Shown here: one piece after another, positions 39,616 through 48,182 of the stretch
How positions within the stretch are numbered: the stretch's first letter is position 1
Layout of the letters: every line of letters begins with the position of its first letter
Assembly: GCA_944391445.1 (NCBI GenBank)
Contig: CALXTL010000003.1
Span: 1 to 64,000, forward strand
Source: an uncultured Alphaproteobacteria bacterium
GTDB taxonomy: Bacteria > Pseudomonadota > Alphaproteobacteria > RF32 > CAG-239
Length of the DNA: 64,000 bases
Direction: 5' to 3'
The notes under the pieces: generated by a model
The model's input: the letters and a program-made list of their open reading frames with translations, nothing else
Database searches by the model: none
Told to the model about the DNA's origin: nothing
Translations under genes and position numbers: made by a program

Positions 39616-40280
39616 GCCGCTTTGGAGGTAATTTCATCCAAAAAACTCAACAGACCTTTATAAGCATAATCAATATATGTTTTATCTTTGGCTGAGTTGT
39701 TTCGATAATATATTCGCACTGTTGTCATGCCGGCTTCTTTAGCATATTCAAGGTTTGAATAACTGTCATCGACAAATACGCAATCATGTGGATCAACCCC
39801 GATTTTAGCGCAATATTTCAGATAAACATCAGCACTCTCATTTTTTTTATACACGCCAAAATCTTCAACCGAGTAATAACGATTTTTAAAATATTCGTAT
39901 ATCCCCAAATGTTTCAAAATTTTCTCTGAAGCATAACGATCGCTGGCAGTAAAAATATACTGCTCAGCCGGAACCTTCATTAATTTTTCAAGCAAATTAT
40001 CATAAGGTATAATTTTTTCGACCGGCTTAATTTTATGATAAGCAATAAACAAATCCCGCGGATTAACACCATATTCGCGATAAAAAATCTCGCCGCCGTC
40101 ACGATAAATCCTAAAAGATTCCGTTACTTTGGCTTTAGCCGTTTCAAAATCAAGCGGCACCTTCAAATCTTCAACCAAGGCTTTGGCCATTGCCGCATCC
40201 AATAAATCGGCAAATTCCTCGGTTTTATTATACAATGTATCGTCTAAATCCCAAATAATGATATGCTTACCGAAAATCAC
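39612..40280 (-). CDS. HAD-family hydrolase (pyrimidine 5'-nucleotidase-like)
   Basis: A 222-residue HAD phosphatase. The nucleophile motif is IIIWDLDDTLYNK (D11), motif II is FTASD and motif IV is CVFVDDSYSNLEYAKEAG. The all-helical cap after motif I and the general layout match the SDT1/YjjG type of pyrimidine 5'-nucleotidase. It acts in the cytoplasm on a small phosphorylated substrate that cannot be named. Confidence 0.75.
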   Translation of the reverse strand: MIFGKHIIIWDLDDTLYNKTEEFADLLDAAMAKALVEDLKVPLDFETAKAKVTESFRIYRDGGEIFYREYGVNPRDLFIAYHKIKPVEKIIPYDNLLEKLMKVPAEQYIFTASDRYASEKILKHLGIYEYFKNRYYSVEDFGVYKKNESADVYLKYCAKIGVDPHDCVFVDDSYSNLEYAKEAGMTTVRIYYRNNSAKDKTYIDYAYKGLLSFLDEITSKAA

Positions 40281-40357
40281 TTTCGTTTATTCCTTTATCA
40301 TCAAAAAATTCCAAACTTAAATAGTATTAACCAAATAGATATTTTGTCAATCAAAAC

Positions 40358-40385
40358 TTGAAAAAGCCCCTTTCCGGCATAAATA
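40358..40385 (+). promoter_or_regulatory. Possible promoter of the small exported protein gene
   Basis: TTGAAA, a 16-bp spacer and TAAATA lie just before the AAAGGAG ribosome site of the gene at 40405. Confidence 0.35.
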
Positions 40386-40404
40386 GCCATAAAGGAGAAA
40401 ATAA

Positions 40405-40644
40405 ATGAAAATTTTGCTTTTTGTTCTTTTTCTGATGACCGTCACCACCGCTGCAGATGCCTATGAAGAAAAAAAAGTCATTGTCGGTAATCCCGGATCA
40501 AAAAACACTGTTCAGATAAATCGTTTTTATGTCATCGGCAATACTAACCCGCAAAACAAAAGCAAAATCATTATTCAGCCGCTGCCGCTGGAAAAAACTT
40601 TTCCCGAAGAACGCGGCGAATTCAAAGAATATGAAGAAGAATAA
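40405..40644 (+). CDS. Small exported protein of unknown function
   Basis: A 79-residue protein with a signal peptide (about residues 1-19, cut after ADA). The mature part is short, charged and ends in EYEEE. AAAGGAG lies 10 nt before the ATG. Convergent to dnaQ, with an 8-nt gap. No family recognised. Confidence 0.55.
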   Translation: MKILLFVLFLMTVTTAADAYEEKKVIVGNPGSKNTVQINRFYVIGNTNPQNKSKIIIQPLPLEKTFPEERGEFKEYEEE

Positions 40645-40652
40645 CCTTCTTT

Positions 40653-41336
40653 TCAAACATTCCATAACGCATCTTTAATTTTTGCCGCCAAAAATTCCTG
40701 ATGCTTTCTTTCTTCTTCATCACTGACAGCAAAAACTCTAGGTTCGCGATATTTCTTTTGCTCACTGCCATTTGTGGAAGTTTGTTTTTGCTCCTTTTTT
40801 GCTTCCTGCAGAAAACTGGGTTCTTTTCCGCCCAAAAGTTCCAAATAAACTTCCGATAACAATTGAGCATCAAGCAAAGCTCCGTGAAAAGTACGGCTGC
40901 TGTTGTCAATACCATATCTTTTGCATAAAGCATCCAAAGAACAGCGCGCACCGGGAAAAAGCATTCGGGCAATTTCCAGCGTATCAACAAATCTTTCTCG
41001 GGCAATTTCAGGTAACCCGATTTGTTTGAGCTCATAATTAACAAAATTCATATCAAAAGAAGCATTATGTGCAACCAGTGTTGCATCACCAACAAACTCA
41101 AGCCAATCTTTGGCAATCTTGTCAAAAGTCGGATAATCTTTCAAAAATTCATAAGTTAACCCGTGAACCCTCACAACTTCTTCAGGAACTTCTTTTTCCG
41201 GATTGATATATTGATGATAAGTCACCCCTGTCGGCACATGATTAATCAGCTCAACCGCCCCGATTTCGACCAGCCTTTCGCCTTTTTCATAGTCAAATCC
41301 TGTTGTTTCCGTATCAAAAACAATTTCTCTGGTCAT
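40653..41336 (-). CDS. dnaQ: DNA polymerase III epsilon subunit (3'-5' exonuclease)
   Basis: A 227-residue proofreading subunit. ExoI is VFDTETTGFD (D7, E9), ExoII is LVAHNASFDMNFV and ExoIII is HGALLDAQLLSEVY. The C-terminal tail is the polymerase-binding part. It overlaps coaE by 23 nt and is co-transcribed with it. coaE-dnaQ next to the origin is a common alphaproteobacterial layout. Confidence 0.95.
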   Translation of the reverse strand: MTREIVFDTETTGFDYEKGERLVEIGAVELINHVPTGVTYHQYINPEKEVPEEVVRVHGLTYEFLKDYPTFDKIAKDWLEFVGDATLVAHNASFDMNFVNYELKQIGLPEIARERFVDTLEIARMLFPGARCSLDALCKRYGIDNSSRTFHGALLDAQLLSEVYLELLGGKEPSFLQEAKKEQKQTSTNGSEQKKYREPRVFAVSDEEERKHQEFLAAKIKDALWNV

Positions 41337-41919
41337 AACTGTTTTCCAATCCTCTTATAATATCAATGAGCTCAGCCTTCAGCAAATTTAAAACCTTATC
41401 CGTATCAACAACCACATCGGCCAGCTTTATTTTATCACTGTTTTTCATTTGCACATTATTAATCTTATCAAAATCTTCTGCCGATACATTATCTCGTTTC
41501 ATTACCCTTTGTTTCTGAATTTCATAGTCAACATCGGCCACCAGAATAAAATCACAATATTTATCCCATCCCATTTCAAACAAAAGCGCTGCATCCACAA
41601 AGAGCAAACCGGAGCGGCGCGCATTATCGCGAATAACCTTTTTCAGCATTTCCTTCAAAAAAGGATGAATCAGACTTTCCAACTGCTTCAATTTGCTGTT
41701 ATCGGAAAACACAACTTGACGAAGCAGTCTTTTGTCAGCCTCGCCGTTTTTAACACTTCCCGGAAAAACACCGGCCAGCACTTGCAAAAATGATTTATTG
41801 TTATATATCTTTCTAACCCAACCATCTGCATCAAAAACAGCATATCCGAGTTTGTTGACAATTCTGGCAATTGTCGTTTTGCCGCAGCCGATTGACCCCG
41901 TAATCCCGATAAGTTTCAT
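41314..41919 (-). CDS. coaE: Dephospho-CoA kinase
   Basis: A 201-residue P-loop kinase that phosphorylates the 3'-OH of dephospho-CoA, the last step of CoA synthesis. The Walker A is GITGSIGCGKTTIARI, and the DxD-type motif FDADGWVRKIY follows. It is the first gene on the left of the candidate origin; the next gene to the right, rho, is divergent. Confidence 0.94.
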   Translation of the reverse strand: MKLIGITGSIGCGKTTIARIVNKLGYAVFDADGWVRKIYNNKSFLQVLAGVFPGSVKNGEADKRLLRQVVFSDNSKLKQLESLIHPFLKEMLKKVIRDNARRSGLLFVDAALLFEMGWDKYCDFILVADVDYEIQKQRVMKRDNVSAEDFDKINNVQMKNSDKIKLADVVVDTDKVLNLLKAELIDIIRGLENSYDQRNCF

Positions 41920-41939
41920 AAAACATTCCTTTTTTTCAA

Positions 41940-42316
41940 AAGGTTATGCCAGTTATCAACAGAACATTAACTTTCTGTGCATAAAAACAACCTTTTCTCA
42001 ATTTATATTATTTTATCACCGCAAAGTAAAATTTAATCTTTGTATTTACACACAGGCTAAAATTTAATCCCAAATATGTGCATAAAAAATCTTATACACA
42101 TAAACAAAAGATTCAACTTGTTCAGAGTCCCTGATTGAAAAAACAAAAGATTAATTTTTGGTAAAAAAAATATTCATCGCTTTATTAACAAGTTCTTAAC
42201 TTTTGGATAACAGATGCAAAAAAAAGATATCAACAACAATCACAGGGATATACAAACAACAAAAACATTTTTTAAATATTTAAGATGATCAGCAAGGCTG
42301 TTCATAAATTTACCCT
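41940..42316. other. Candidate chromosomal replication origin (oriC)
   Basis: An AT-rich gap of about 480 bp between divergent coaE and rho. DnaA-box-like 9-mers with one mismatch to TTATCCACA: TTATCAACA (41953-41961), TTATGCACA on the minus strand (41976-41984 and 42077-42085), TTATACACA (42092-42100) and TTATCCAAA on the minus strand (42202-42210). TTATTAACA (42182) has two. An exact TTAA-N7-TTAA CtrA-type site is at 42185-42199. A/T-only stretches at 42140-42180 and 42245-42285 could unwind. Position beside rho, parAB and coaE-dnaQ matches known alphaproteobacterial origins. Confidence 0.65.
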
Positions 42317-42326
42317 GTGAAAAAAG

Positions 42327-42355
42327 TTGACATTCAAGCGAAAACTTCCTATAAA
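42327..42355 (+). promoter_or_regulatory. Promoter of rho
   Basis: A consensus TTGACA, a 17-bp spacer and TATAAA, 46 bp before the rho ATG. Confidence 0.75.
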
Positions 42356-42400
42356 AGCATTGTTAATTCCTATAATAATTCCCCACACACAAAGGTTTCC

Positions 42401-43654
42401 ATGAATTTAAAAGATTTAAAACAAAAATCTCCGACTGAGTTGCTGACTCAGGCTGAAGAGCTTGGCATTGAAGATGCTTCTTCAATGCGTGTGCAAGATC
42501 TTATGTTTGCTATACTTAAAAAAGTAGCAGGTGATGACCAAACTATCAGCGGCGAAGGAACAATTGAAGTTCTTCAGGATGGTTTTGGATTTTTAAGATC
42601 TGCTCAATCAAATTATTTAGCCGGTCCTGATGACATTTATGTTTCTCCAGCACAAGTAAAAAAATACGGTCTGCGTACGGGTGACACAGTTGAAGGAGAA
42701 ATCCGCGCGCCCAAAGAAAATGAACGTTATTTTGCTTTGGTAAAGGTTAATAAAATTAATTTTGAAGATCCTGAAAAATCAAAGCTTCGAGTCAATTTTG
42801 ACAATCTGACCCCGCTCTATCCCACAAAAAAACTCAATTTTGACATTATTTGCGGCGAAAAAGACTACACCACCCGGGTGATTGATCTGATATCCCCGCA
42901 AGGCAAAGGTCAGCGTGGTCTGATTGTGGCGCCGCCGCGTACTGGAAAAACAGTGATGCTGCAAAATATTGCTCATGCGATTGCCGCCAATCATCCCGAA
43001 TGTTATCTGATGGTATTGCTGATTGATGAACGTCCTGAAGAAGTGACCGACATGACTCGTTCTGTCAAAGGAGAAGTTATTTCTTCCACTTTTGACGAAC
43101 CGGCAACCCGCCACGTCCAAGTGGCAGAAATGGTAATTGAAAAAGCCAAGCGTCTGGTTGAAACCAAAAAAGACGTGGTCATTTTGCTCGATTCCATCAC
43201 GCGTCTTGGTCGTGCTTACAATACTGTAATTCCTTCTTCCGGAAAGGTCTTGACTGGCGGTGTCGATGCCAATGCTCTCCAAAGGCCGAAACGCCTGCTT
43301 GGTGCCGCACGTAATGTTGAAGAAGGCGGATCTTTGACAATCATCGCCACAGCTTTAATTGATACCGGTTCGCGCATGGATGAAGTTATTTTTGAAGAAT
43401 TCAAAGGAACCGGAAATTCGGAAATCATCCTTGATCGTAAATTAACCGACAAACGTCTGTTTCCCACCATTGACATCACGCGCTCCGGTACACGAAAAGA
43501 AGAACTTTTGGTTGATCGTGACCGTCTGTCTAAGATGTGGGTTTTGCGTCGGGTCCTGATGCAGATGGGGATGACCGATGGTATGGAATTCTTGCTTGAT
43601 AAACTCAAAAATTCTAAAGATAATGATGACTTTTTCAATACAATGAATTCTTAA
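42401..43654 (+). CDS. rho: Transcription termination factor Rho
   Basis: A 417-residue hexameric RNA helicase. The N-terminal Rho_N part starts [15 protein letters not shown], the RNA-binding domain has GFGFLRS, and the ATPase has Walker A APPRTGKT (about residue 177) with [13 protein letters not shown] downstream. The ATG at 42401 (AAAGG upstream) gives the normal family length; an upstream GTG at 42317 overlaps the promoter and is rejected. Confidence 0.97.
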
Positions 43655-43663
43655 AAAAATATC

Positions 43664-43696
43664 AAAACCGATCTTTTGGATCGGTTTTTTTTTTTA
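43664..43696 (+). terminator. rho terminator
   Basis: ACCGATC pairs with GATCGGT over a short loop, followed by eleven T residues. Confidence 0.92.
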
Positions 43697-43713
43697 ACTT
43701 TTAAAATTTTTTA

Positions 43714-43743
43714 TTGACTTTGCCGCTTTAGTTTGAATATCAT
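43714..43743 (+). promoter_or_regulatory. Promoter of the leader/ATP-grasp module
   Basis: TTGACT, an 18-bp spacer and TATCAT, right after the rho terminator. Transcription would start near 43750, giving a leader of about 400 nt before the ATP-grasp gene. Confidence 0.5.
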
Positions 43744-43774
43744 AAACGGCAGTTGACTATGAAGAAAGACAATA

Positions 43775-43888
43775 ATGCAGACAAATTATAATAAATATTT
43801 GCGACTGTTGCATGCCGGGCATGGAGGTTTCGGCAGAGGTTTGTCTTTGTCTTTTTTATTCATTTTTATCCTCATTATCAACCTCTAG
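43775..43888 (+). CDS. Leader mini-ORF 1 (37 residues, hydrophobic end)
   Basis: A 37-residue ORF in the leader of the ATP-grasp gene. A GAAGAAAG stretch lies just upstream of its ATG. The first half is polar (YNKYLRLLHAGHGGFGRG); the last part is a hydrophobic run of Leu, Phe and Ile. Its stop TAG lies inside the 5' arm of a hairpin. The start MQTNYNKYLRLL resembles the start of the ATP-grasp protein (MQKINQNLNRLL). Possible regulatory leader peptide or small membrane peptide. Coding is not proven. Confidence 0.35.
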   Translation: MQTNYNKYLRLLHAGHGGFGRGLSLSFLFIFILIINL

Positions 43889-43925
43889 ATGCTTTTAAAG
43901 AATACCAAGTTTTAGCATTTAGAGG
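43882..43925 (+). repeat. Leader hairpin 1
   Basis: CCTCTAGATGCT pairs with AGCATTTAGAGG (12 bp with one G-U pair, 20-nt loop). No T run follows. It is a near copy of the hairpin at 44052. Its 3' arm AGAGGA is also the ribosome site of the 11-residue ORF at 43932. Confidence 0.7.
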
Positions 43926-43931
43926 ATATTG

Positions 43932-43967
43932 ATGACAAACTTTACGTCAACTTGTTTCAGAGGATAA
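43932..43967 (+). CDS. Leader mini-ORF of 11 residues
   Basis: A very short ORF (MTNFTSTCFRG) whose AGAGGA ribosome site lies 5 nt upstream, in the 3' arm of hairpin 1. Its last codons AGA-GGA form the ribosome site of mini-ORF 2. This interlocking suggests translational relay, but it is unproven. Confidence 0.25.
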   Translation: MTNFTSTCFRG

Positions 43968-43972
43968 ATCTT

Positions 43973-44059
43973 ATGCCGTTTTCATCGTTTTTTCATTTAT
44001 TTTCTTTTTTGCCGGGTTTTTTATTCCTGTTTGTTTTGTTGTGCTTGCGCAGCCTCTAA
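43973..44059 (+). CDS. Leader mini-ORF 2 (28 residues, Phe/Leu-rich)
   Basis: A 28-residue ORF with AGAGGA 9 nt before its ATG. Eight Phe and eight Leu codons make up most of the sequence (FFHLFSFLPGFLFLFVLL in part), reminiscent of amino-acid attenuator leaders or of a small membrane peptide. Its stop TAA lies in the 5' arm of hairpin 2, the same arrangement as mini-ORF 1. Coding is not proven. Confidence 0.4.
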   Translation: MPFSSFFHLFSFLPGFLFLFVLLCLRSL

Positions 44060-44094
44060 ATGTTTCCATTTCAGAAATTTAGGCATTTAGAGGC
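44052..44094 (+). repeat. Leader hairpin 2
   Basis: GCCTCTAAATG pairs perfectly with CATTTAGAGGC (11 bp, 21-nt loop). No T run follows, so it is not a plain terminator. Arm sequence and loop length match hairpin 1. It ends 58 nt before the ATP-grasp ATG. Confidence 0.75.
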
Positions 44095-44152
44095 AGATTC
44101 ACATAAATTTCAAAAAAAATAAAATCAAAAACTAATGAGAAAGAATAATAAT

Positions 44153-45973
44153 ATGCAGAAAATCAATCAGAATTTAAACCGGCTTTTAGAAAAAGTTGCC
44201 GGAGATTTTAAAAGACAAAATGTCAGTATTGTTATGCCGACTTATGTACCGCAGCGTGGTGAAATTTTGTGCGAATTTGCTTCTCGCGGAGTTGAAACAG
44301 CCATTTCCGGCGGCATCCGCGGCGCACGTTGCTTCAAAGAAATTTCACAATACGGTATGGAAGAAGATACTTTACCTTATACAGACGGTTTTCCCGATAA
44401 CATCACCGGTCGAATTGTTGACCTGCTTCCGGAATCCAGCCTGCGCAATCGTAAAGTAGCTGTCTTTTCTTATGTCAATAACCTTGGTTGGAGCCGGCAT
44501 ATTGAAAATCGTGGCCTTAATACGGAAATTATAGCCACGGCGGAACAAAATTTACGCGGTTATTTTGAAGAAAAAGGTAATTTGCTCAAAATTCTTGATA
44601 CCGCAGGTCTGTCTGTTTATAAAATTCCGACCCGTCACGTCAGTCATAACACAACAATAGATGAATTGATTGAAATTTATGAAAATATAAAAAATGAAGA
44701 TGGCCGTGTTGTGGTTCAGGATTGTTGTTCCGAAAAAGGAAATGCTGGTGGCAAAGGAACTTTGTTTATCAATTCTTGTGATGAATTTATTGAAAATATA
44801 AAAATGCATCAAGGTCGCCGTAAAGTTGCCCGTTTTATCAAAGGATTTGAAAGTAATTTGTCGTTTTTTGCCGGTAATATCAAAGCAGACGATAAAATGC
44901 TCGGCGCCAAGAAAATGAATTTAACACCGGAAATGGACGCTTTTGATCCGAACACTTTGGATCTTTTGCTGCGTCAGGCCAAATTAGCCGGAATTAATGA
45001 AAGTAATATCATAACTATTGTCGGCCGAGGCACATTAAAAGCCGTTGGCGACGAATATCTGACCAGCAATGAAAGCAACGGTGTCGGTAATGATGTCGGC
45101 TACGTTTATCCGGATCATATTCGTGCCCAAATTAAAGAAATCGGCACAAAATTATCCCGTTTAATGGCCTTAAGCGGCAAAGTAGGTATTGCCGGAGCAG
45201 ATTTAATTATTGATAAAAACGGCAAAGTCTGGATTAATGAGATTAATGATCGTCAACAAGGACCAACAGCTCAAATGTCCAAAGATGCTGAAGCCAACGG
45301 AGTTCCTTCTTTGCTTAAGATATCGCTTTTAAGCAGTTTTGCCGACTTTAAAGATCCGGAAGTCAAGCAAACATTCAAAGAACTCCGCCAAAATTCGGAT
45401 ACCATACATGAAGCCTATGCCACCGGTCTGGGAGAATTTTACCTTAAAGTTCATTCAACGCATCCCAAAGGGCAATACGAGGAAGTCAAACATAATCTGA
45501 AACCAGGCTTTTATACCATTTTTAAGCAGCCAGACGGAGACTGGAAGCTTGACTTTGCTTCGTATAAAAGTGAATCTGCCAAAATACCGTATCAAACAGA
45601 TCCGGCAACAGACAAAGTTGTTGTCAAATTGGTCGGCGGCGACTGGAAAATCGGAGACAAAGTGGATAATGCGTCACAATTATTTCGTCTGACAGGCATT
45701 ACGAACCCGAAAAATCCGCCTTTTGTCATTGAAAATGGTAAGACAAAACTGAATAAATCCTGGCAGCCTGTTGTTGAAGCCTGCTATACATATTTATTTG
45801 GCAAAGGTTATATCCGCAAAAATCAACTTTGGCAGCAAAGACATCCGGAAGACAGATTATCCGTGCGCTGGTCGCCTGTGGCTCATCGCAGCGGTTTTAT
45901 GCCGGCCAATCAAAACAAACTGACTTCCGATAAATTATTCAACATCAAGCTGGTTGCTTCAGGGAGAAATTGA
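44153..45973 (+). CDS. ATP-grasp carboxylate-amine ligase-like protein
   Basis: A 606-residue protein. The ATP-grasp core spans about residues 130-400: a VVVQDCCSEKGNAGGKGTLF glycine-rich loop, a KVARFIKGFESNLSFF region and the metal-binding end ADLIIDKNGKVWINEINDRQ (Asp, Glu and Asn ligands). Residues 400-606 form an extra C-terminal domain I do not recognise. ATP-grasp ligases join a carboxylate to an amine through an acyl-phosphate. The next gene, an M14 deacylase, starts 2 nt downstream. The ATG at 44153 has GAGAAAG 9 nt upstream; an ATG at 44135 has none. Confidence 0.75.
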   Translation: MQKINQNLNRLLEKVAGDFKRQNVSIVMPTYVPQRGEILCEFASRGVETAISGGIRGARCFKEISQYGMEEDTLPYTDGFPDNITGRIVDLLPESSLRNRKVAVFSYVNNLGWSRHIENRGLNTEIIATAEQNLRGYFEEKGNLLKILDTAGLSVYKIPTRHVSHNTTIDELIEIYENIKNEDGRVVVQDCCSEKGNAGGKGTLFINSCDEFIENIKMHQGRRKVARFIKGFESNLSFFAGNIKADDKMLGAKKMNLTPEMDAFDPNTLDLLLRQAKLAGINESNIITIVGRGTLKAVGDEYLTSNESNGVGNDVGYVYPDHIRAQIKEIGTKLSRLMALSGKVGIAGADLIIDKNGKVWINEINDRQQGPTAQMSKDAEANGVPSLLKISLLSSFADFKDPEVKQTFKELRQNSDTIHEAYATGLGEFYLKVHSTHPKGQYEEVKHNLKPGFYTIFKQPDGDWKLDFASYKSESAKIPYQTDPATDKVVVKLVGGDWKIGDKVDNASQLFRLTGITNPKNPPFVIENGKTKLNKSWQPVVEACYTYLFGKGYIRKNQLWQQRHPEDRLSVRWSPVAHRSGFMPANQNKLTSDKLFNIKLVASGRN

Positions 45974-45975
45974 AA

Positions 45976-46920
45976 ATGAAAATAAATAAACAAAGAGATT
46001 TTATCGGTACCACGCCGATGGGAACGGTCTTGGATATTCTGAGCTATGAGATGGATTCCGGTCAGGAAGGAAAAACCGTATATATCCAAAGCGGCATCCA
46101 CGGTGGCGAGATAACCCAGTGGATTATGCACGAACTTTTTTTGTTTTTGAAAAAAAATCTGCTTTGTGGAAAGGTTATCTTGCTTCCCTGTGCAAATCCG
46201 GTTTCTTGGACACAAAGAATCTATTATTCAACCAATGGTAAGTTTGATTTATATAACGGCAAGGATTGGAATCGCAATTTTCCGGGAAAATCAGACGGAT
46301 CCATGGGAGAAAGGATTGCCGCTGTTTTGTTTGCAAAAGCTTCTAAAGCTGATTTTGTTTTGGATTTACACACTTCCAGAGAATCAATACCTTTTGCAAT
46401 TTATGCCCGTGCAGAAGACAAAGAAATCATAAAAAAACTTGGCATCAGCTATAATCAGTATATTGATATGGGCAAAAGCTCTGCTTATGCCGGAACACTG
46501 AATGCAGCTTTAATATCGGCCGGTGTGCCCAATCTGTGTATTGAATGCGGTAGCCATGATTCTTATGAATCACAAAATATCCGTGAGGTTATCAATGGCA
46601 TCAAACGGCTGCTGGCTTCTTTACAAATGATAGATACAAAACTGGCGGAACCGGCACCATCAAAAATTAAAACTTTTGCAAAAACCGTTAAATATCTTGC
46701 GCCACGCGGCTGTTTAATCCGTTTGGCCAAGCCGCTCGGTGCATCAATACAAAAAGGAGATGATTTATTTTATTGTTTTGATAATGCGGATCTTGGTTCG
46801 GCAGTGGCCGTCCAGTCAGAACATAATGGCGTATTGTTCAAAGTATCGCCGACACATATTTATTGGAGCGGTGATGAAGTTGTACAATTGCTCTCCGATG
46901 AAGATTCTGAAATACTCTAA
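45976..46920 (+). CDS. M14 zinc deacylase (AstE/AspA family)
   Basis: A 314-residue succinylglutamate desuccinylase/aspartoacylase-type enzyme. Zinc ligands are in HGGEITQW (His and Glu) and DLHTSRES (His). The substrate-binding NRNFPG and the catalytic Glu in LCIECGSHD are present. The family splits N-acyl amino acids or C-terminal amide bonds. GGGAG is 9 nt before the ATG at 45976. With the ATP-grasp ligase it may make and then unmask an amide-linked product. The substrate is unknown. Confidence 0.8.
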   Translation: MKINKQRDFIGTTPMGTVLDILSYEMDSGQEGKTVYIQSGIHGGEITQWIMHELFLFLKKNLLCGKVILLPCANPVSWTQRIYYSTNGKFDLYNGKDWNRNFPGKSDGSMGERIAAVLFAKASKADFVLDLHTSRESIPFAIYARAEDKEIIKKLGISYNQYIDMGKSSAYAGTLNAALISAGVPNLCIECGSHDSYESQNIREVINGIKRLLASLQMIDTKLAEPAPSKIKTFAKTVKYLAPRGCLIRLAKPLGASIQKGDDLFYCFDNADLGSAVAVQSEHNGVLFKVSPTHIYWSGDEVVQLLSDEDSEIL

Positions 46921-46921
46921 A

Positions 46922-46955
46922 AAAAATTCCCTTGAACACTCAAGGGAATTTTTTA
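46922..46955 (+). terminator. Terminator of the ATP-grasp/M14 module
   Basis: AAAATTCCCTTGA pairs with TCAAGGGAATTTT and is followed by TT. Confidence 0.9.
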
Positions 46956-46961
46956 ATAGTT

Positions 46962-47441
46962 TCAAATGGCGAAATAACACATTCCAAAAAAGAAAAAAGC
47001 CAAACATACAACAAAAAGTGTACCAGATGCTCTATTTCTTGTATAATAACGCCATTCTCCGATAATTTCGCCTTCATCGGTAATTGTTCCGTTCCAATCC
47101 CGCGTTGGCGTGACTTCGTTAAAATGCAAAAGTGCGCCCATAGGCGGTGCGTAGCAATGGATCAAAACAACGGCTGCTGTGCCCAAAAGAACCCAAGGTT
47201 CACCTAAAAGCAAAGGTGTCAAAACAACATCTGTCGTTACCAAGCCCCACATCAAACGCAGTCTGCAGGAAGAAAGAGGAAACAAACCCCATTTCAGATT
47301 GAAGAAAATATATATTCCCCAACCGATGCTGTAAAGTTTCAAACCTGTTTTGATATCCCAAAACATACCCCAGACCATAATGGCCGCAAACACAACGATC
47401 AAACCGTTGAGCAGAAATAATTCCTTCTTTTTCATAACCAT
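46962..47441 (-). CDS. Membrane protein of unknown function
   Basis: A 159-residue protein with four hydrophobic segments (about 9-27, 35-52, 64-92 and 138-158) and a polar loop (NEVTPTRDWNGTITDEGE) between the last two. No signal or enzyme motif. No clear ribosome site; the ATG at 47435 is an alternative. It converges on the ATP-grasp/M14 module, with only the terminator between. Family not recognised. Confidence 0.55.
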   Translation of the reverse strand: MVMKKKELFLLNGLIVVFAAIMVWGMFWDIKTGLKLYSIGWGIYIFFNLKWGLFPLSSCRLRLMWGLVTTDVVLTPLLLGEPWVLLGTAAVVLIHCYAPPMGALLHFNEVTPTRDWNGTITDEGEIIGEWRYYTRNRASGTLFVVCLAFFFFGMCYFAI

Positions 47442-47522
47442 AACAATTAATTAATTATATAAAACATGCCTCTATTTAAGCGCAAAAATTTATTTTGGCA
47501 AGTTTTTAATAAAAAATAGGTT

Positions 47523-48182
47523 TTATTTTTCATTTAAAATAAATTTTTTTATTTCCGACATATCATCAAAAATATTTTTCACCCCGATTTTTTTTATTTC
47601 ATCAATATAAGATTCCGAATTATATAAAACAAAAGCCGCCGCCGGCATTTTGGCTTTTTGTGCCGCGAACAGTCCGGACAGAGAATCTTCAATAACAAGA
47701 CAATTTGCTGCTTCATAATTCATAACATCTGCCGCCAGCAAAAACAAATCAGGTTCAGGTTTGCCGGCTGCAACCATATCTGCGGTAAACACCCTTTCAG
47801 GCGGAAAATATTTTTCAATGCCGACGCATTTTATTTTTTGCTCGGTTTTTGCGGCCGTACCGCCGGTAGCAATGCACTGGTCAAAGTCTGTGAGTTTGAA
47901 AATATCTTCGATTCCTTTTGTTAGCGCAAAACCTTTGGCCATTTTTCGCATATCGCGTATCAATGCTTCATCCCAAAAATCTTTGTCCGTGTCAAAACCC
48001 AGATCATGCAAAACGGCTTGTTTGGTTTTATCACTCATGCCGGTCAAAAAATGGGCCGTCGTTTTAAAATCCCATCCGGCGTCAAATTTTTCATTAAGCA
48101 TTTCCATGCGTGTTTGCAACCATAATTTTTCAGTATCGGCGATAACACCGTCAAAATCCCATATGATTAGTTTTTTATTCAT
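47523..48182 (-). CDS. HAD-family phosphatase (beta-phosphoglucomutase-like)
   Basis: A 219-residue HAD hydrolase. Motif I is IIWDFDGVIADTEKLW (nucleophile D9), motif II is IATGGTAAKT and motif IV is KPEPDLFLLAAD with CLVIEDSLSGLFAA. The cap after motif I is helical, as in beta-phosphoglucomutase-like phosphatases. It acts on a sugar phosphate or nucleotide that cannot be named. Likely an independent gene. Confidence 0.75.
   Translation of the reverse strand: MNKKLIIWDFDGVIADTEKLWLQTRMEMLNEKFDAGWDFKTTAHFLTGMSDKTKQAVLHDLGFDTDKDFWDEALIRDMRKMAKGFALTKGIEDIFKLTDFDQCIATGGTAAKTEQKIKCVGIEKYFPPERVFTADMVAAGKPEPDLFLLAADVMNYEAANCLVIEDSLSGLFAAQKAKMPAAAFVLYNSESYIDEIKKIGVKNIFDDMSEIKKFILNEK

What the first reader, a model, noticed from the sequence alone, without database searches (positions are those of the whole stretch)
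43714..46955. Accessory ATP-grasp plus M14 deacylase module beside the candidate origin
Between rho and mnmE, which are near neighbours around many alphaproteobacterial origins, sits a self-contained unit: promoter, 400-nt leader with two peptide-and-hairpin modules, a 606-residue ATP-grasp ligase with an unrecognised 200-residue C-terminal domain, an M14 AstE/AspA deacylase 2 nt later, and a terminator. Ligase plus deacylase suggests building and then trimming an amide-linked compound, or modifying a peptide or protein end. Gene content, order and leader are not something I recognise as a described system.
Basis: partly seen in the sequence, partly recalled or inferred. Interest (0 to 1): 0.8.

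Follow-up and report, generated by a model that had tools for sequence, protein, structure and literature searches.

The report
Starvation-sensing leader controlling a ligase-hydrolase pair
In small-genome gut alphaproteobacteria, a two-gene unit that probably attaches something to an amino acid and takes it off again sits behind an RNA leader that appears to sense shortage of particular amino acids, and the same leader also sits in front of unrelated enzyme pairs of the same make-up, which points to an undescribed amino-acid-starvation response.

Summary
In detail: promoter, two leader ORFs with hairpins, a 606-residue ATP-grasp protein, an M14 AstE/AspA hydrolase 2 nt later, and a terminator. 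The pair is conserved: 19 of 153 genomes of the order have the ATP-grasp and the same 19 have the M14 gene. Each leader ORF ends in codons for one amino-acid class: Ile/Leu here; Phe/Tyr, Met, Trp, Cys or Arg before other copies. In most loci these codons are complementary to the ribosome-binding site of the next ORF (permutation z=-10), and a covarying hairpin with a pseudoknot follows. I read this as translational attenuation by amino-acid starvation; the genus lacks ilvC. An RNA search found the same leader before unrelated pairs: amidoligase + N-formylglutamate amidohydrolase-like, an unknown 611-aa protein + S66 peptidase, and GNAT + M20 deacylase, several in the same slot after rho. Best reading: a starvation-induced module for reversible conjugation of the scarce amino acid. 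Regulation is well supported by sequence; the reaction is inferred. Main rival: detoxification of aminoacyl-tRNA-synthetase inhibitors or analogues. No Rfam family or paper I found describes the leader or this combination.

The parts
43714..43743 (+). sigma-70-like promoter TTGACT-18-TATCAT
   Evidence: the same kind of site precedes the leaders of relatives
43775..43888 (+). leader ORF 1, 37 aa, ends ..FLFIFILIINL* (Ile-rich control region)
   Evidence: in-frame ILV excess over other frames across 45 leaders
43865..43873 (+). TTTATCCTC in the control codons of leader 1, complementary to the ribosome-binding site of leader 2
43882..43925 (+). hairpin P1 of leader 1 (CCTCTAGATGC / GCATTTAGAGG), 5' arm overlapping the stop codon; loop AAGTTT 43907-43912 can pair with AAACTT 43937-43942 (pseudoknot)
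   Evidence: pseudoknot pairing by inspection, supported in relatives
43960..43968 (+). GAGGATAAA, ribosome-binding site of leader 2, sequestered by 43865-43873
43973..44059 (+). leader ORF 2, 28 aa, ends ..FVLLCLRSL* (Leu-rich control region)
44053..44093 (+). hairpin P1 of leader 2 (CCTCTAAATG / CATTTAGAGG); GAAATTTA 44074-44081 can pair with TAAATTTC 44104-44111 (pseudoknot)
44153..45973 (+). ATP-grasp protein, 606 aa (P0001); putative amino-acid ligase, LdmS-like in its core
45976..46920 (+). M14 AstE/AspA-type metallohydrolase, 314 aa (P0002); zinc/catalytic residues H42, E45, H132, E190 and N99-R100 invariant
46921..46954 (+). intrinsic terminator

Best explanation
The locus is an amino-acid-starvation-induced operon. 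The leader works by translational attenuation. A ribosome translating the leader ORF stalls at control codons when the matching aminoacyl-tRNA runs short. Those codons lie in the strand that base-pairs with the ribosome-binding site of the next ORF, so a stalled ribosome frees that site and the next ORF is translated. The hairpin + pseudoknot directly 3' of the control codons would pause the ribosome there or reset the switch. In the window two leaders act in series (Ile-rich, then Leu-rich), so the enzymes would be made when branched-chain amino acids are scarce in a bacterium that lacks ilvC. The ATP-grasp enzyme then ligates an amino acid, probably the one named by its leader codons, to a small carboxylate such as aspartate, and the M14 enzyme cleaves the amide, so a scarce amino acid can be trapped, stored or released. 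Shown: gene pairing, leader architecture and covariation, complementarity of control codons to the ribosome-binding site, in-frame control residues, catalytic residues, occurrence of the leader before four kinds of enzyme pair. Inferred: induction by starvation, the substrates, the physiological purpose.
For: Pairing: the ATP-grasp and the module-type M14 occur in the same 19 of 153 genomes, adjacent where contigs allow. Extra ATP-grasp copies beside one M14 gene carry leaders with different residues: YFSYYFFIGF (Phe/Tyr), IMMGMMSCLL and LMMSCLL (Met), SWQASWISLLW (Trp); elsewhere IYCCCMNLL and MMMCCCCSTH (Cys), RRSFRRS and RRRTERR (Arg). The Arg-leader clade includes one locus (L057) with an arginine repressor gene divergently upstream instead of the leader. 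Control-region/ribosome-binding-site complementarity: 34 units z -8.6, 49 units z -10.0, 16 further units z -4.8. P1 hairpin: 10 of 12 pairs with two-sided changes, 96.9% paired versus 30-53% when slid. Pseudoknot z -5.2. ILV fraction 0.59 in frame versus 0.32 and 0.14 in the other frames, p 5e-9, so the residues are not only a by-product of anti-SD base composition. No ilvC over cut-off in the genus, with 14/14 positive controls. In G026 the two paralogues share a 598-nt identical run over residues 275-475 while the N-terminal half stays diverged, as expected if specificity differs. All 24 members match NCBIfam LdmS weakly (best 7.6e-7). The M14 model matches DoeB and the beta-Asp-Arg hydrolase CphZ among others. 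The same leader precedes Amidoligase_2 + FGase, an unknown protein + S66, and GNAT + M20.
Against: No expression or enzyme data. Several second leaders, including the window's own leader 2, show no strong local complementarity of control codons to the ribosome-binding site (win_2 rank 30/34), although the whole leader folds so that the ATP-grasp start region is paired. Leader units are related by descent, so the z-scores overstate independence. In many leaders single-residue counts are only modestly significant, and the class labels were partly assigned after looking. Making an amide of a scarce amino acid is not an obvious remedy for its shortage. The ATP-grasp is far below the LdmS cut-off (24 versus 475 bits).
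Confidence: 0.5

Rival explanations
1. Inducible detoxification: the leader senses blocked aminoacyl-tRNA synthetases (inhibitors such as aminoacyl-adenylate mimics, or toxic amino-acid analogues). The ligase/acyltransferase and hydrolase inactivate the compound, or conjugate free amino acids of the wrong kind and spare the right one.
For: Enzyme kinds change at one locus behind one leader and presence is patchy within a genus, as in resistance islands. GNAT and S66 are the enzyme types of microcin C immunity (MccE, MccF; own knowledge). A free-standing B3/4 (PheRS editing-type) protein sits beside the Cys-type copies in two genomes. Ile/Leu dominate the leaders, and IleRS/LeuRS are common inhibitor targets (own knowledge).
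Against: Every kind pairs an amide-forming or acylating enzyme (the 611-aa one is unknown) with an amide hydrolase, which is odd for a detoxifier. No toxin genes recognised nearby. The S66 protein's only NCBIfam match is to a muramoyltetrapeptide carboxypeptidase model.
Confidence: 0.25
2. Modification of a protein or peptide end (RimK-like): the ATP-grasp adds residues to a protein and the M14 enzyme trims them under starvation.
For: Operon links between ATP-grasp and other amide ligases are discussed in the amidoligase literature (Iyer et al. 2009, cited in PMC4431377). RimK modifies a ribosomal protein in response to environmental cues (PMC11957791 abstract).
Against: No RimK family match. 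Exchange by GNAT + M20 ArgE-like and amidoligase + FGase suggests small-molecule substrates. Different copies have different leader residues.
Confidence: 0.1
3. The leader ORFs are ribosomal precursor peptides (RiPP) that the ATP-grasp modifies.
For: Short ORFs lie directly upstream of an ATP-grasp; graspetides work this way (PMC8939145 abstract).
Against: The same leaders precede enzymes with no ATP-grasp. Their 3' ends are constrained as RNA: covarying hairpin and pairing to the ribosome-binding site. Sequences range from Arg-rich to Cys-rich to Ile/Leu-rich with no common core.
Confidence: 0.05
4. Classical transcription attenuation (trp/his type), not translational.
For: Leader peptide with control codons followed by hairpins; the L056 leader has a terminator-like hairpin with a T run before the gene (seen by eye).
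Against: No hairpin with a T run lies between P1 and the ATP-grasp gene in the window. Pairing to the ribosome-binding site is the recurrent feature.
Confidence: 0.1

Closest known systems
LdmS, L-aspartate--L-methionine ligase of Staphylococcus aureus (PDB 7r8p/7r8q) and other L-amino-acid ligases
   Same: ATP-grasp core; all 24 members match NCBIfam NF047900 weakly over the catalytic segment and 7r8q is among the structural matches. LdmS is also tied to amino-acid control (sulfur amino acids; own knowledge, paper not held).
   Different: Score 24 bits against a cut-off of 475, longer C-terminal part, different lineage, partnered with an M14 gene; substrates unknown.
CphZ cyanophycin dipeptide hydrolase and DoeB, M14 AstE/AspA-type
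   Same: Same fold with TMq 0.76-0.80. M14 'succinylglutamate desuccinylase/aspartoacylase family' enzymes are reported as isoaspartyl dipeptidases for beta-Asp-Arg/Lys (PMC10206079).
   Different: 15-19% identity; nearest structures are uncharacterised 3fmc/3lwu; partner is an ATP-grasp without the cyanophycin synthetase architecture.
Amidoligase operons with ATP-grasp, GS-like and GNAT enzymes (Iyer et al. 2009, cited in PMC4431377)
   Same: The same three unrelated kinds of amide-forming enzyme, linked in operons.
   Different: Here they alternate behind one conserved amino-acid-sensing leader, several of them in one chromosomal slot after rho.
Polycysteine-leader attenuators of mycobacteria (Canestrari et al. 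2020, title seen in PMC9094748) and erm/cat translational attenuation
   Same: Short ORF with codons for the sensed amino acid; ribosome stalling controls the downstream gene.
   Different: Control codons themselves pair with the downstream ribosome-binding site, a conserved hairpin + pseudoknot follows, leaders may be in series, and the sensed residue varies among paralogues.

Membership tests
LdmS (NF047900) / L-amino-acid ligases | score above the curated equivalog cut-off | tested here: not met
   24.3 versus 475 bits
LdmS (NF047900) / L-amino-acid ligases | ATP-grasp fold with Mg/ATP-binding residues (GGKGT loop, NEIN motif) | tested here: met
   K141, G200-T203, D350, N362-E363, N365, R367 invariant in 24 members; model pLDDT 90 matches ATP-grasps
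LdmS (NF047900) / L-amino-acid ligases | ATP-dependent dipeptide formation | not testable with these tools
   needs enzyme assay
M14 AstE/AspA catalytic family (PF24827) | score above the Pfam gathering cut-off | tested here: met
   74.8 versus 25 bits
M14 AstE/AspA catalytic family (PF24827) | zinc ligands HxxE..H, catalytic Glu, Asn-Arg pair | tested here: met
   H42, E45, H132, E190, N99, R100 invariant in 19 members
CphZ (cyanophycin dipeptide hydrolase) | encoded beside cyanophycin synthetase/cyanophycinase | tested here: not met
   neighbours are the ATP-grasp and housekeeping genes; no cyanophycin gene recognised among those examined
CphZ (cyanophycin dipeptide hydrolase) | hydrolysis of beta-Asp-Arg/Lys | not testable with these tools
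   needs assay
Leader-peptide attenuator | short ORF with codons for one amino-acid class near its 3' end | tested here: met
   (62 leaders)
Leader-peptide attenuator | RNA structure coupling leader translation to the downstream gene | tested here: met
   pairing to ribosome-binding site z -10.0; covarying P1
Leader-peptide attenuator | response to limitation of that amino acid in vivo | not testable with these tools
   needs reporter assay
Transcription attenuator (trp/his type) | intrinsic terminator between leader and gene | tested here: not met
   none 3' of the P1 hairpins in the window
Any Rfam riboswitch or leader family | match above gathering score | tested here: not met
   no credible match in the window or 12 related loci; only tRNAs reach gathering

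The most novel reading that the evidence does not exclude
A previously undescribed starvation response in gut alphaproteobacteria: one modular RNA leader, whose control codons name the scarce amino acid, drives interchangeable, non-homologous conjugating enzyme + hydrolase pairs that reversibly mask that amino acid (or its toxic look-alikes). Paralogous ATP-grasp ligases in one operon have different specificities that can be read directly from their leaders.
Probability: 0.35. Interest if true: 0.9.

Novelty: new variant of a known kind. Interest (0 to 1): 0.75.

Why it matters
If right, the leader codons give a direct, testable prediction of enzyme substrate (Ile/Leu, Phe/Tyr, Met, Trp, Cys, Arg) for families whose reactions are unknown, and show a regulatory RNA reused for unrelated enzyme pairs: module kinds A, B and C together occur in 51 of 153 sampled genomes of an uncultured gut lineage. 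It would reveal how amino-acid auxotrophs of the gut cope with shortage, or resist synthetase inhibitors, and add a translational attenuator type in which the sensing codons themselves mask the next ribosome-binding site.

Tried and rejected
Rfam search of the leader: only sub-threshold chance matches. PDB sequence search of the ATP-grasp: LdmS only, weak. Class and phylum searches found no further real relatives outside the order except G220/UR.bin47; the two other hits are short core matches. Viral contigs, phages and plasmids: none. The leader hairpin as a genome-wide repeat: rejected, in the own genome the pattern and the RNA model match only here. Other M14 hits in the order are weak and belong to other M14 genes. 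Mutual exclusion of the module kinds: not significant (A and B together in 2 genomes against about 3 expected, A and C in 1). The L136 hit of the RNA model is false (no leader; a large, apparently unrelated ORF lies downstream). LdmS paper not held. RiPP and transcription-attenuation readings were considered and ranked low.
Full report
WHAT IS THERE. Between rho (ends 43654) and mnmE (starts 48360) lie a promoter-like site, two leader ORFs each ending in a hairpin, an ATP-grasp ORF of 606 codons, an M14 ORF starting 2 nt after the ATP-grasp stop codon, and a terminator. Two further ORFs on the other strand (47441-46962 and 48182-47523, the latter HAD-like by its sequence) separate the unit from mnmE. 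Cumulative GC skew is lowest at 40-48 kb, in agreement with an origin nearby.

CONSERVATION. The ATP-grasp was found in 19 of 153 genomes of the order and in one member of another family of the class (L022/G220), but not in the other roughly 780 genomes sampled across class and phylum (apart from two short core matches), nor in phages, plasmids or viral contigs. The module-type M14 was found in exactly the same 19 genomes; where contigs are long enough the two genes are adjacent. The unit is therefore real, variable in position (after rho in six loci, elsewhere in others) and patchy (7 of 34 sampled genomes of the genus). In some genomes two or three ATP-grasp genes share one M14 gene (G033, G026, G019, G116, L022).

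THE PROTEINS. The ATP-grasp model (pLDDT 90) matches biotin carboxylase, PurK, GAR synthetase and LdmS structures. By sequence the only consistent characterised relative is LdmS, and only over the catalytic segment (24 of 24 members), far below the family cut-off. Residues expected for ATP and Mg binding are invariant. The C-terminal part from about residue 428 is modelled with confidence, mostly beta, up to about residue 555; I could not assign it. The M14 model (pLDDT 90) is an AstE/AspA-type hydrolase with complete active site. Nearest solved structures are unassigned 3fmc and 3lwu, with DoeB and CphZ also close. CphZ-type M14 enzymes hydrolyse beta-Asp-Arg/Lys (PMC10206079), and LdmS makes Asp-Met (name of NF047900; own knowledge), so 'aspartyl-amino-acid made by one enzyme and cleaved by the other' is an economical guess, no more.

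THE LEADER. Upstream of nearly every ATP-grasp copy there is a short ORF; outside the Arg clade its last codons precede a hairpin P1 (consensus roughly CCTYYTARRYGY and its complement). P1 covaries: 10 of 12 pairs show changes on both sides, 96.9% of cells pair, against 30-53% when partners are slid. The P1 loop pairs with sequence just downstream (pseudoknot) better than in permuted combinations (z -5.2). The 3' part of the leader ORF is complementary to the ribosome-binding site of the next ORF: z -8.6 for 34 units, z -10.0 for 49, z -4.8 for 16 others. Clear examples: L038 copy 2 CTTCTTTATCG with CGATAAAGAAG; L046 CATATATTGTT with AACAATATATG; L052 TTTCTCTCC with GGAGAGAAA and its relative L053 with GGAGGGAAA. 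In the window the codons for Phe-Ile-Leu (43865-43873) pair with the site of leader 2 (43960-43968), and the global fold closes the ATP-grasp start region as well, although the local pairing of leader 2 with it is weak.

CONTROL CODONS. The residues at the critical place differ by copy: Ile/Leu(/Val) in most, Phe/Tyr in the second copies of G019/G026/G033, Met and Trp in the second and third copies of L022, Cys in the clade of L046-L049 and L047b, Arg in the clade of L051-L056. The Arg clade contains L057, which lacks such a leader but has an arginine repressor gene divergently upstream. The Arg-type leaders keep the complementarity to the ribosome-binding site but not the P1 hairpin. A caution: a strand complementary to a purine-rich ribosome-binding site is pyrimidine-rich and tends to encode Leu, Phe and Ser. 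But ILV residues are far more frequent in the reading frame (0.59) than in the other two frames of the same DNA (0.32, 0.14; p 5e-9), and Met, Cys, Trp and Arg cannot be explained that way. In G026 gene conversion has homogenised residues 275-475 of the two paralogues (598 identical nt) while the N-terminal halves remain 38-76% identical, as expected if the N-terminal half holds different substrate specificities.

THE SAME LEADER BEFORE OTHER ENZYMES. A covariance model of P1 (R1) found, apart from the module loci, hits in genomes without the ATP-grasp. There the leader, again ending in Ile/Leu codons, precedes (B) a PF12224 Amidoligase_2 protein + PF05013 FGase, (C) an unknown 611-aa protein + S66 peptidase, or (D) GNAT + M20 ArgE-like deacylase. 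Ortholog searches put B in 24 and C in 11 genomes, and all 16 additional B and C loci inspected with a complete leader have it. Kinds A, B and C together occupy 51 of 153 genomes. Rho lies directly upstream in examples of all four kinds. Four unrelated enzyme pairs, three with a recognisable amide-forming or acylating member and all with an amide hydrolase, behind one leader suggest one physiological job.

FUNCTION. None of the sampled genomes of the genus has ilvC over the cut-off while all 14 control genomes do, so they are very likely unable to make branched-chain amino acids. The best reading is a starvation response that conjugates and deconjugates the scarce amino acid; trapping a leaky, scarce hydrophobic amino acid in charged form is one rationale. 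The main rival is inducible detoxification of aminoacyl-tRNA-synthetase inhibitors or analogues, which would equally stall ribosomes at these codons and would explain the turnover of enzyme kinds. I give 0.8 to attenuation by amino-acid limitation, about 0.6 to a conjugase/hydrolase acting on small amino-acid compounds, and about 0.5 to the whole statement including matched specificity.

NOVELTY. Leader-peptide attenuators, ATP-grasp ligases and amidoligase operons are known kinds. I found no description of this leader, nor of its reuse before non-homologous ligase-hydrolase pairs, in Rfam or in the papers searched, with the limit that subscription papers are not held.

Noticed in passing
L121, L122, L123, L128, L129, L130, L131 and L137-L148, L153: Type B module: Amidoligase_2 (about 570 aa) + N-formylglutamate amidohydrolase-like (about 245 aa) behind the same starvation leader; 24 of 153 genomes of the order have the amidoligase.
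   Followed up: partly
L124-L127, L132-L134, L149-L152: Type C module: a 608-612-aa protein with no credible Pfam/NCBIfam/PDB match, usually followed by an S66 LD-carboxypeptidase-like gene, behind the same leader.
   Followed up: partly
L135:1736-3615 (G116:C11): Type D: GNAT acetyltransferase + M20 ArgE-like deacetylase directly after rho behind a Leu-rich leader of the same kind.
   Followed up: partly
L047:6613-6730 (G116:C4): A tRNA-Met (CAU) gene ends 40 nt before an ATP-grasp copy that lacks the usual leader.
   Followed up: no
L039:6116-10886 (G026): Gene conversion between tandem ATP-grasp paralogues: 598 identical nt covering residues 275-475.
   Followed up: yes
L048:5343-6005 and L046:2680-3357: A free-standing B3/4 (PheRS editing-type) domain protein lies directly upstream of the Cys-leader ATP-grasp (Pfam tested on L048; L046 by sequence cluster).
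   Followed up: no
G069:C116:1263-2192: A decayed copy of the M14 gene with two internal stop codons beside an intact ATP-grasp.
   Followed up: no
L057:5769-6185 (G102): Arginine repressor gene divergent from an Arg-clade ATP-grasp, with a palindromic ARG-box-like stretch TGTATAAATATACA between them.
   Followed up: partly
L022:5200-11593: Outside the order: three ATP-grasp copies with Ile/Val/Leu, Met and Trp leaders around one M14 gene; an aminotransferase and a SUKH-like gene lie upstream.
   Followed up: partly
window 40001-48000: Cumulative GC skew minimum, consistent with a replication origin near this locus.
   Followed up: no
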